NCBI GenBank assembly: GCA_017936205.1
Contig: JAGBGB010000275.1
Coordinates: 1 to 12,912, forward strand
Direction: 5' to 3'
Length of the DNA stretch: 12,912 bases
DNA from: Oscillospiraceae bacterium
GTDB lineage: Bacteria; Bacillota; Clostridia; Oscillospirales; Oscillospiraceae
Every line of letters begins with the position of its first letter. The first letter of the stretch is position 1. Positions 7,748-12,912 of the stretch are shown here, piece after piece. The position numbers were made by a program, and so were the translations under genes. The notes beneath the pieces were generated by a model. It was given only the letters and a program-made list of their open reading frames with translations, searched no databases and was not told where the DNA came from.

Positions 7748-7956
7748 CAAATTCCGATTTATCGTACCATTCGTAGGGGCGCGCATTGCGCGTCCGACAA
7801 CCACCAAGAATTGGTGGTTGTGAAAATGTTTCGTTTTTTGGAGAAATTACATCTTTTTCGGTGGTTTTTGTGTTCATGGCGTTACGCCATGAACCGGACG
7901 CGCAATGCGCGCCCCTACGAAGGGGTAAATCAAACTGTTCGATAATTCGGAATTTG
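7748..7956 (+). repeat. Palindromic non-coding element, copy 1 (MITE/REP-like)
   Basis: This 209-bp element lies between the M50 gene and the rnf operon. It is bounded by imperfect terminal inverted repeats, CAAATTCCGATTTATCG at the left and the inverse of CAAATTCCGAATTATCG at the right (one mismatch in 17). Inside, 7770-7796 pairs perfectly with 7895-7921 (27 bp, containing GTAGGGGCGCGC). Between the arms are two hairpins: 7797-7821 (11-bp stem, GAA loop) and 7872-7894 (10-bp stem, TTA loop), joined by a 50-nt T-rich linker. Each outer arm also holds the near-palindrome CGCGCATTGCGCG. There is no plausible coding content. It resembles a non-autonomous MITE or composite REP element, but no parent transposase is present here. 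Confidence 0.85.
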
Positions 7957-7989: not shown

Positions 7990-9144
7990 TCAGGAACGGC
8001 GGAAGAGGGAGGCTACGAAGGTGGCACGCTGATCCGTCAGCTCCATAAGGGAGCGTTCCTCTGCTACCTCGTCTCGGTAGGGATAGACCTGTGCTACGGA
8101 TTCAAAGCGAGCCTTCAGGCTCTGTGCCTTGGGCTCGTTCCACTCCAGAAGACGGGCGAGAGCATATTCCGTGCGGAGGATCTGCAGGTTCTTGCCTAAG
8201 TTCTTCATGAGCTTCTTCTGCTCAGGGGTCAGGAGCTGCTGTACCACCTCAGGGCGGTTCTGCCGCATAAGCTCCAGATAGACCCGTTCAGCGGTCAGCA
8301 GCACACGATGCAGCCCAATGAGTCCGCTGTCGATTTCCAGCAGGTGCTCCATGAGCCTGTCTGCATCGTCAAAGAGTCGCTGCTCCATGAGCCTGCCACA
8401 GCATGCCACAGCCAGAGTGGCAACCATGCTGTCCTTCATAGCTTCGTCTGAGGGGACGGTGAACCAGTGTGCAGGCATATCCTTGTAGGTCACACCTAAG
8501 GATTCCTGTTCCACCATTGCCATCTGCAGGAGGTAGGCTTCCTTGGCTGCGGGGGAGCGTGCAATGGACAGGGCATTGTGACCATCGTTGATAACCAAGC
8601 CTGCCCTCATAGGAATGCCGTTGGAGATCAAGCTCAGGAAGGTCAAGGCTCCCGGTATAAGCAGGAAGAATCTTACATAGGGATCTGGGCAGAGGCAGAA
8701 GGCGACCAGCAGGAGCAGGGTACAGGAAATGGCATCTAAGATAACACCGCCCATGTGATGCAGCACAAGAGCTCCTGTGCTGACTCCGTCCTTGGGTGGG
8801 AACATGATACACTGACCGCCGGTGCCTGCCAGCTTGTATCTCCTGAACTTCAGCTTCCCATTGTCCTTGATCCAGATGAAGGAGTACAGGCGGAAGGAGC
8901 GGAAACGGAAGCCCAGCAGCTTGCCTGTCAGAAGGTGTCCGCTTTCGTGAATGGCTACATGGAGGAGGCTGGAAGCGAACAGGCAAAGGAAGAATGCCAA
9001 ATACAGTAGCAGGGCCTGCGAGGCTCCAAGGCTGTCACTGAGCCTGTCTAAGTGCCGAGCCGCAAAGGTGCCCAGAGCAACACCGAACACCAGAGGCAGG
9101 ATCTGCCGTGCTGATCCGATCTTCTGTTTTTTTCTTTGATTCAT
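7990..9144 (-). CDS. Membrane-embedded M50-type (site-2 protease-like) zinc metallopeptidase with uncharacterised C-terminal domain
   Basis: The 384-residue protein has hydrophobic segments at about 44-66, 128-151 and 156-178. The zinc motif HESGH is at 66-70 at the end of a helix, and SNGIPM...NDGHN (174-190) has the N-x-x-P...DG layout of the third-ligand region in the M50 family, with Asp187 as candidate ligand. M50 enzymes cleave substrates within or next to the membrane. Residues about 205-384 form a soluble, helix-rich region that I do not recognise. The ATG at 9144 follows AAGGAGG with about 7 bases of spacing. It appears monocistronic, and direct-orientation repeat copies 1 and 2 lie on either side. 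Its substrate is unknown; a role in peptide processing or regulated proteolysis would be inference. Confidence 0.82.
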   Translation of the reverse strand: MNQRKKQKIGSARQILPLVFGVALGTFAARHLDRLSDSLGASQALLLYLAFFLCLFASSLLHVAIHESGHLLTGKLLGFRFRSFRLYSFIWIKDNGKLKFRRYKLAGTGGQCIMFPPKDGVSTGALVLHHMGGVILDAISCTLLLLVAFCLCPDPYVRFFLLIPGALTFLSLISNGIPMRAGLVINDGHNALSIARSPAAKEAYLLQMAMVEQESLGVTYKDMPAHWFTVPSDEAMKDSMVATLAVACCGRLMEQRLFDDADRLMEHLLEIDSGLIGLHRVLLTAERVYLELMRQNRPEVVQQLLTPEQKKLMKNLGKNLQILRTEYALARLLEWNEPKAQSLKARFESVAQVYPYRDEVAEERSLMELTDQRATFVASLFRRS

Positions 9145-9197: not shown

Positions 9198-9408
9198 GAA
9201 ATCACGATTTTCCGTACCTTTCGTAGGGGCGCGCATTGCGCGTCCGCGAACCACCATGAAATGGTGGTTCGCTAAAAATGTTCGAATTTTAATGGAAATC
9301 ACATCATTATCGAAGGTTTTTGTGTTCATGTCGTTCCGACATGAACCGGACGCGCAATGCGCGCCCCTACGCAGCGGTAAATCAAACAGCGCGACAAAAC
9401 GGAATTTG
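9198..9408 (+). repeat. Palindromic non-coding element, copy 2 (MITE/REP-like, diverged)
   Basis: This second copy of about 211 bp is in the same orientation as copy 1 and starts 54 bases upstream of the M50 start codon. The outer arms 9222-9246 and 9347-9371 pair perfectly over 25 bp and are identical to the core arms of copy 1. Hairpins lie at 9247-9271 (11-bp stem, GAA loop) and 9324-9346 (10-bp stem, TTC loop). The right terminal repeat CGGAATTTG is intact, and the left one is degenerate (GAAATCACGATTT). Stem changes relative to copy 1 are all compensated on the other side. Confidence 0.83.
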
Positions 9409-12660: not shown

Positions 12661-12708
12661 AAGGCTGTCTCTCATGATGGTTTGAACCCAATCATAAGAG
12701 ACAGCCTT
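12661..12708 (+). terminator. Hairpin terminator of the sdpR-sdpI-ABC operon, possibly bidirectional
   Basis: AAGGCTGTCTCT (12661-12672) pairs perfectly with AGAGACAGCCTT (12697-12708). The stem is extended by ATGAT/ATCAT pairing inside. The downstream plus-strand tract is only ATTCTAT, while the minus strand has CCTTTTATG after the stem, so it may work in both directions. It starts 15 bases after the permease stop and ends 21 bases before repeat copy 3. Confidence 0.75.
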
Positions 12709-12729: not shown

Positions 12730-12912
12730 CAAATTCCGATTTATCAAACAGTTTGGTTTAACGCTGCGTAGGGGCGCGCATTGCGCGTCCGGTTCATGGC
12801 GTAACGCCATGAACACAAAAACCACCGAAAAAGATGTAATTTCTCCAAAAAAACAAAACATTTTTCACAACCACCAATTCTTGGTGGTTGTCGGACGCGC
12901 AATGCGCGCCCC
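12730..12912 (-). repeat. Palindromic non-coding element, copy 3 (inverted, cut by window edge)
   Basis: This copy is in the opposite orientation to copies 1 and 2. It begins with terminal repeat CAAATTCCGATTTATC at 12730. One outer arm is at 12767-12791 and the opposite arm begins at 12892 and is cut by the window end. Hairpins lie at 12792-12814 (loop TAA) and 12867-12891 (loop TTC), the reverse complements of those of copy 1. The linker is nearly identical to that of copy 1 read backwards, with only a few differences. So copies 1 and 3 are recent relatives and copy 2 is older or from another subfamily. Confidence 0.83.

What the first reader, a model, noticed from the sequence alone, without database searches (positions are those of the whole stretch)
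7748..7956. About 210-bp palindromic element family with nested hairpins, three copies in under 5.2 kb
The sequence shows three copies (7748-7956, 9198-9408, 12730-12912) of the same architecture: short terminal inverted repeats starting CAAATTCCG, a 25-27 bp GC-rich perfect outer stem, and two inner 3-nt-loop hairpins joined by a T-rich linker. As single-stranded DNA or RNA this gives a clover-like fold. It is larger and more ordered than a simple REP and has no coding content. It may be a non-autonomous mobile element driven by a transposase elsewhere in the genome, or a structural RNA/DNA element.
Basis: partly seen in the sequence, partly recalled or inferred. Interest (0 to 1): 0.7.

Follow-up and report, generated by a model that had tools for sequence, protein, structure and literature searches.

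The report
Capped REP palindromes, high-copy mobile repeats
The three palindromes are copies of a small non-coding DNA repeat present more than a hundred times in this gut bacterium's genome: a known kind of bacterial hairpin repeat (a REP pair) wrapped in a second set of inverted ends that also enclose other palindromes in related species and in phage-like DNA.

Summary
The elements at 7748-7956, 9198-9408 and 12730-12912 (inverted, cut by the contig end) belong to a family with 249 REP-half and 269 end matches in the window's 2.46 Mb draft genome (controls 0). The core is a GTAG-tagged REP doublet (REPIN); the same 23-mer lies inside a REP-associated transposase (RAYT) ORF of an order-level relative, uncapped there. 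Unusual is a 16-bp inverted repeat outside the REPs ("cap", AAATTCCGATTTRTCG): in 329 kb of this genome 50 of 54 sides of such REP dimers carry it, so the capped unit was multiplied. The same caps enclose at least eight other palindromic interiors, REP and non-REP, in congeners, and occur in tailed-phage-like contigs; one insert there is absent from relatives. REP stems diverge 0.6%, other segments 2.4-12%. No target duplication was seen outside the caps and no cap-flanked transposase was found in the stretches sampled. Best reading: a composite MITE-like element, a REPIN nested in a cap pair that sets its ends, moved in trans by an unidentified enzyme. GTAG dimers inside longer palindromes are in print (PMC3733652), so this is a new variant of a known kind.

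The parts
7748..7956 (+). element copy 1, complete (209 bp)
7749..7764 (+). left cap AAATTCCGATTTATCG (outer terminal inverted repeat)
7772..7796 (+). GTAG-type REP half (25 bp, outer stem)
7797..7821 (+). inner hairpin 1 (11-bp stem, 3-nt loop)
7822..7871 (+). linker
7872..7894 (+). inner hairpin 2 (10-bp stem, 3-nt loop)
7895..7919 (-). inverted REP half ending CTACG
7940..7955 (-). right cap (inverted)
9198..9408 (+). element copy 2, complete, left cap degenerate
9222..9246 (+). REP half of copy 2
9347..9371 (-). inverted REP half of copy 2
12730..12912 (-). element copy 3, inverted relative to copies 1 and 2, cut by the contig end
6218..7543 (-). neighbour: rnfC-like gene, first of the rnf cluster; copy 1 lies upstream of it
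   Evidence: Complex1_51K, RnfC_N
7990..9144 (-). neighbour: ORF between copies 1 and 2; no Pfam hit; weak similarity to ORFs of congeners, which I take by eye for site-2-protease-like

Best explanation
Shown: the family is multi-copy, its ends are the caps, the caps occur with other interiors, the same REP is linked to a RAYT elsewhere, and the REP stems are about ten times more conserved than the linker. Inferred: an ancestral capped element received a REPIN (laid down by a RAYT) in its middle, and the capped unit was then multiplied by an enzyme acting in trans on the caps or on the long hairpin that the unit forms as single-stranded DNA. Copies are tolerated mainly between genes, often between converging genes, where the hairpins could act as terminators. 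The enzyme is not identified.
For: Copy number: 249 REP halves and 269 ends in 2.46 Mb, controls 0. In 20 G000 contigs plus the window (329 kb) 27 GCGC-type REP dimers have 54 sides: 50 capped, 2 cut by contig ends, 1 where another capped element takes the place of the cap, 1 without a cap; 6 of 6 halves of a second REP type (GTAGGGAACGG) there are capped too, while 2 of 2 dimers of a third (GAAGC/GATGC) are not. The caps enclose many palindromes: 93 cap pairs of G000, G014 and G016 fall into 17 clusters by interior, and one spacer arm is found with different cores. Caps occur in 8 of 17 genus genomes: G014 280, G000 198, G016 27, G009 17, four others 1-2. The exact REP 23-mer lies in the RAYT ORF L324 of G041; none of 6 further G041 REP loci has a cap beside the REP. 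Other REP types flank RAYTs L002, L003 and L194; 8 of 8 candidate RAYTs hit NF047646 best, 1 of 8 above its cut-off. Phage-like contigs carry capped elements at gene borders, and the second L302 insert is absent from L407-L411. In G000 10 of 21 placed elements sit between convergent genes against 28 of 182 gene pairs; in G014 15 of 46 against 50 of 257.
Against: No gene enclosed by caps was found: none in 616 kb of G014 and G016, no cap-to-cap stretch of 0.8-6 kb in 329 kb of G000, none at 20 PF01797 loci of the genus; most of each genome was not looked at. No target duplication outside the caps in 76 copies. No exact same-species empty site was available; orthologous sites between species are too diverged to read the junction. 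The strongest conservation is in the REP (6 of 1000 sites against 35 of 640 in the caps), which would fit RAYT recognition rather than cap recognition. Some REPINs in the same genome lack caps.
Confidence: 0.6

Rival explanations
1. An ordinary REPIN moved by its RAYT through the REP hairpins; the caps are flanking DNA carried along because the founding copy had them.
For: REP stems are the most conserved part (0.6% against 2.4-12%); the exact REP is inside a RAYT ORF in G041; there is no target duplication, as expected for a Y1 enzyme; the genus has RAYTs with their own REPs.
Against: Unit ends fall at the caps in GCGC, other-REP and non-REP interiors alike; a RAYT cutting at GTAG would leave the caps behind. 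The four Y1 genes found in G000 (72.5% complete) carry other REPs or none.
Confidence: 0.27
2. The caps are pre-existing palindromic targets into which REPINs and other palindromes insert. (This overlaps with the nesting step of the best explanation.)
For: Di Nocera et al. 2013 (PMC3733652, section 7 read) put it so for Anabaena GTAG-15 and T. roseum GTAG-23; interiors of many kinds share the caps; a few bare or nearly bare cap pairs exist: L124 and two in the phage-like L284, and with 4 mismatches three pairs of 44-45 bp in G016, two of which look like the left part of a longer palindrome.
Against: With up to 3 mismatches 0 bare against 86 loaded cap pairs in the G000, G014 and G016 samples; caps, arms and core are multiplied together at 91-97% identity (40 scored copies of 219 candidates).
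Confidence: 0.15
3. A structural RNA or cis-regulatory hairpin conserved for function, not a mobile element.
For: Strong fold; convergent intergenic placement.
Against: No Rfam family; presence or absence differs between orthologous loci; only 2 of 63 pairs show a change on both sides, and 62 of 500 shuffles reach that; full-length matches among 60 relatives in G000 only, with 13 candidates scored per genome.
Confidence: 0.05

Closest known systems
REPIN (Bertels and Rainey 2011, PMC3116915; passages seen)
   Same: Inverted pair of REPs forming a hairpin, intergenic, many copies, strong conservation of the two REPs, RAYT association.
   Different: Here the multiplied unit reaches beyond the REPs to a separate cap pair; two extra inner hairpins; unit about 209 bp.
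GTAG-15 dimers in Anabaena variabilis and GTAG-23 in T. roseum (Di Nocera et al. 2013, PMC3733652; abstract, sections 7 and 16 and passages seen)
   Same: GTAG REP dimers inside longer palindromes; empty palindromes not found in A. variabilis.
   Different: Here one cap pair encloses many interiors, REP and non-REP, across a genus and in phage-like contigs; the cap does not fit the published consensus sequences.
MITE (general; RUP, Nezha and others as listed in PMC3733652)
   Same: Short, non-coding, 15-30 bp terminal inverted repeats, many copies.
   Different: No visible target duplication; no autonomous partner with these ends found; the interior is itself a REP doublet.
TIRtron / TIRYT (Di Nocera et al. 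2013, section 16 read)
   Same: Y1 transposase genes flanked by inverted repeats other than REPs.
   Different: No Y1 gene enclosed by these caps was found.

Membership tests
REPIN / GTAG-type REP | two inverted REPs, each with GTAG at the foot | tested here: met
REPIN / GTAG-type REP | high copy number, extragenic | tested here: met
   (0 of 24 in an ORF; crude ORF calls, and ORFs under 700 bases covering over half an element were dropped first)
REPIN / GTAG-type REP | REPs more conserved than the rest of the unit | tested here: met
REPIN / GTAG-type REP | replicating unit ends at the REP doublet | tested here: not met
   50 of 54 sides extend to a cap
REPIN / GTAG-type REP | a RAYT with the same REP in the genome | tested here: inconclusive
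   not among 4 Y1 genes of the 72.5% complete G000; exact REP in RAYT ORF L324 of G041
REPIN / GTAG-type REP | movement by the RAYT | not testable with these tools
   needs an experiment
MITE | terminal inverted repeats, no coding capacity, under 300 bp | tested here: met
MITE | target-site duplication | tested here: not met
   no excess of direct repeats outside the caps in 76 copies; an AATT duplication inside the invariant cap cannot be tested
MITE | autonomous partner with the same ends | tested here: inconclusive
   none in the stretches sampled
TIRtron / TIRYT | Y1 transposase enclosed by the caps | tested here: not met
   0 of 20 PF01797 loci of the genus; L187 (G004) has two caps with 2 mismatches upstream of an IS200-like gene, not enclosing it; other matches have 3-4 mismatches; loci reach at most 1.5 kb either side
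Rfam RNA family | score above gathering threshold | tested here: not met
   0 matches

The most novel reading that the evidence does not exclude
The caps are a general carrier: a 16-bp inverted end pair with its own, still unknown transposase that takes up whatever palindromic repeat lands in its middle (REPINs of several RAYTs, and non-REP palindromes), multiplies it as one unit, and travels between species on phages. REPINs would then have two independent ways of spreading.
Probability: 0.35. Interest if true: 0.75.

Novelty: new variant of a known kind. Interest (0 to 1): 0.5.

Why it matters
REPINs are thought to depend on their RAYT. Here a REPIN population is found almost only inside outer ends that also carry other palindromes, so the question of which enzyme moves REPINs becomes testable in one genus: RAYT recognition predicts that the REP matters, cap recognition that the caps matter. 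It also shows how nested palindromes build larger composite elements, and that phage-like DNA can carry them.

Tried and rejected
Target duplication: 8 offsets, lengths 2-10, 76 copies, no excess over shuffled pairing. Cap-flanked autonomous element: the long cap-to-cap candidate examined (L165:5985-7684) holds ordinary-looking ORFs and poor cap matches; none of 0.8-6 kb in the G000 sample. Y1 genes enclosed by caps: none of 20. Empty sites: three orthologous pairs between species, too diverged to read junctions; within the fetched loci no closer pair. Cap-supplied stop codons: in 365 cap ends the stop of an upstream open frame falls exactly on T plus AA of the cap 12 times, against a mean of 2.6 at the 39 positions before. 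I considered reading this as a sign that AAATTT is the target and AATT a hidden duplication; one phage case (L302:2596) favours it, because the joined flanks would lack a stop, but PMC3733652 reports that REP ends often supply stops, so I leave it open. In one search the right end of some of the 12 (surely L302:728) was misplaced by the script, so I use only the L302:2596 row. Covariation: too little variation. Caps in the family: 7 of 300 genomes, two of the genus; the other five have a single hit each and none of these five loci shows a complete element. Literature: searches (open-licence papers only, listings seen) showed no description in Oscillospiraceae.

Slip: one row had wrong coordinates (3 bases of L031); I repeated the alignment correctly and used only that one. 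clusters by single linkage, so its largest cluster joins two REP types.

Full report
Observation. The window is the whole of contig C28 (12,912 bases) of a 2.46 Mb, 364-contig, 72.5% complete draft genome, G000. The three palindromes are present as described, with two corrections: copy 2 has a degenerate left end, and copy 3 is inverted and cut by the contig end. Both complete copies fold far better than shuffles (z -16.1 and -11.8). No Rfam family matches.

Copy number and range. The REP half GTAGGGGCGCGCATTGCGCGTCC occurs 249 times (up to 3 mismatches) and the end CAAATTCCGATTTRTCG 269 times (up to 2) in G000; reversed controls 0. Several contigs begin or end in a copy (places), so the draft seems to break at them. 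A search of 60 relatives with copy 1 (13 candidates scored per genome) found full-length matches only in G000; six other genomes matched pieces, mostly the REP core, and G014 matched the outer end. The outer end alone (up to 1 mismatch) occurs in 8 of 17 genus genomes: G014 280, G000 198, G016 27, G009 17, G006 2, and one each in G002, G010 and G011. A longer exact pattern was found in 7 of 300 genomes of the family: 83 in G000, 6 in G009, single hits in five other genera, none of which showed a complete element. G014 contigs have the same lengths as contigs of SIG473 there, so I infer that it is that genome.

Anatomy. From the outside in: cap (AAATTCCGATTTRTCG), spacer arm, 25-bp REP half with the GTAG tag, hairpin 1, linker, hairpin 2, inverted REP half, spacer arm, inverted cap. 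Conservation begins sharply with the first A of the cap; one base further out C is found in 55 of 76 left and 56 of 76 right ends, beyond it only a weak symmetric preference (G, then Y, reading inward). In 76 complete copies there is no excess of direct repeats outside the caps. Because AATT inside the caps is nearly invariant, a hidden 4-bp duplication cannot be excluded.

The cap is part of the multiplied unit. In 20 G000 contigs plus the window (329 kb; contigs chosen because long and known to hold copies), 27 GCGC-type REP dimers have 54 sides: 50 capped, 2 cut by contig ends (L319), 1 in which another capped element takes the place of the cap (L309), 1 with no cap (L312). Of other GTAG REPs in that sample, 6 of 6 halves of the GTAGGGAACGG type are capped, and 2 of 2 dimers of the GAAGC/GATGC type are not, though capped copies of the GATGC type exist elsewhere in G000 (L074, L081).

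The cap carries other interiors. In G000, G014 and G016, 93 cap pairs form 17 clusters by interior (up to 4 mismatches per cap; single linkage, the largest cluster merges two REP types; three of the 93 are short pairs of 44-45 bp). Interiors include several GTAG REP types and palindromes without GTAG, such as those built on GTTGAAAGTGGAAAGT, GTGGACAGTTGACAGT and CCTTCTCCTTGAGGAGAAGG. A spacer arm recurs with different cores. Bare cap pairs with up to 3 mismatches: 0 against 86 loaded ones in those samples; besides the three short pairs, a few exist elsewhere (L124, L284).

Where the core comes from. RAYT-like Y1 genes of the genus carry their own REPs: L002 (GTAGGGGCGATGC...), L003 (GTAGGGCAAG...), L194 (GTAGGGGTGGG...). 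L004, L193 and L195 stand next to the same gene in three species (PLP-enzyme-like by eye, not searched) and hold REP-like palindromes inside the ORF. The exact 23-mer of the window lies twice, inverted, inside the RAYT ORF L324 of G041, an order-level relative; none of 6 other G041 REP loci has a cap beside the REP. All 8 proteins tested hit NF047646 (REP-associated tyrosine transposase) best, 1 of 8 above the curated cut-off. No GCGC-type RAYT was seen in G000; its draft is incomplete.

What is conserved. In 20 copies located by their caps and a length of 195-235, the REP halves differ from the consensus at 6 of 1000 aligned sites, hairpin 1 at 12 of 500, caps at 35 of 640 (13 of these at one purine/pyrimidine-type variable position), hairpin 2 at 26 of 460, linker at 63 of 1014, arms at 11 of 140 and 46 of 387. 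Constraint or conversion on the REP stem is therefore strong; this is the main result against a purely cap-driven mechanism. Covariation is uninformative in this recent family.

Mobility. Copies lie mostly between genes: 0 of 24 in an ORF in G000 and 2 of 54 in G014 (crude ORF calls; ORFs under 700 bases covering more than half an element were dropped before the count). In G000 10 of 21 placed elements lie between convergent genes against 28 of 182 gene pairs; in G014 15 of 46 against 50 of 257. IMG/VR contigs L284 and L292 encode capsid, portal and terminase proteins and L302 a tape-measure protein; they carry capped elements at gene borders. The insert of L302 after the tape-measure gene is absent from related contigs L407-L411 (L407-L410 read); no relatives close enough were found for the inserts of L284 and L292. 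In 12 of 365 cap ends the cap supplies the TAA stop of an upstream open frame, against a mean of 2.6 at each of the 39 preceding positions.

Mechanism. Shown: multi-copy family, unit ends at the caps, interchangeable interiors, RAYT link of the REP, presence/absence in one phage-like case. Inferred: nesting of a RAYT-made REPIN in a capped element and multiplication in trans by an enzyme that reads the caps or the long hairpin. I give this 0.6, against 0.27 for RAYT alone with passive caps and 0.15 for caps as targets; the last overlaps with the nesting step, so the figures are not exclusive.

Comparison. Di Nocera et al. 2013 (PMC3733652; abstract, sections 7 and 16 and passages seen) describe GTAG-15 dimers inside long palindromes in Anabaena variabilis, without empty palindromes, and Y1 genes flanked by other inverted repeats. 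Bertels and Rainey 2011 (PMC3116915, passages seen) define REPINs and argue that RAYT movement would give strong conservation of the two REPs. The present family shares these traits but differs in one cap pair serving many interiors across a genus and in phage-like contigs. Hence: new variant of a known kind.

Noticed in passing
L324:1432-1908, L193:1411-2217, L195:1438-2088, L004:259-939: RAYT genes of four Oscillospiraceae-order genomes carry REPs or REP-like palindromes inside their own reading frame without stops, in a stretch that varies between them (peptides such as GADDSVRP, VGARIARP).
   Followed up: partly
L082:399-756 and L089:1344-1702: A second small palindromic element (GAGGCTGCTGAAAAAGTCC ends) sits in the right REP half of two capped copies at the same site, with an apparent 9-bp duplication CGCGCAATG; its interiors differ, so two separate events are likely.
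   Followed up: no
L311:118, L317:138, L183:180 and 10841, L173:160: A sequence beginning TGTCAAGAG, probably the end of an insertion sequence, interrupts REP halves at a similar point in G000 and G014, near contig ends.
   Followed up: no
L309:18811-18879: The left end of another capped element (GTAGGGAACGG type) follows the right REP half of a GCGC element in place of its own cap.
   Followed up: no
L284, L292, L302: Phage-like contigs with two or more capped palindromes each, mostly at gene borders.
   Followed up: partly
L187:281 and 801: Two degenerate caps (2 mismatches each) facing outward upstream of an IS200-like gene in G004, a genus genome with no cap match at 1 mismatch.
   Followed up: no
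window 12661-12708: A terminator-like inverted repeat (AAGGCTGTCTCTCATGAT...) before copy 3; similar gagacagcc hairpins precede some other copies.
   Followed up: no
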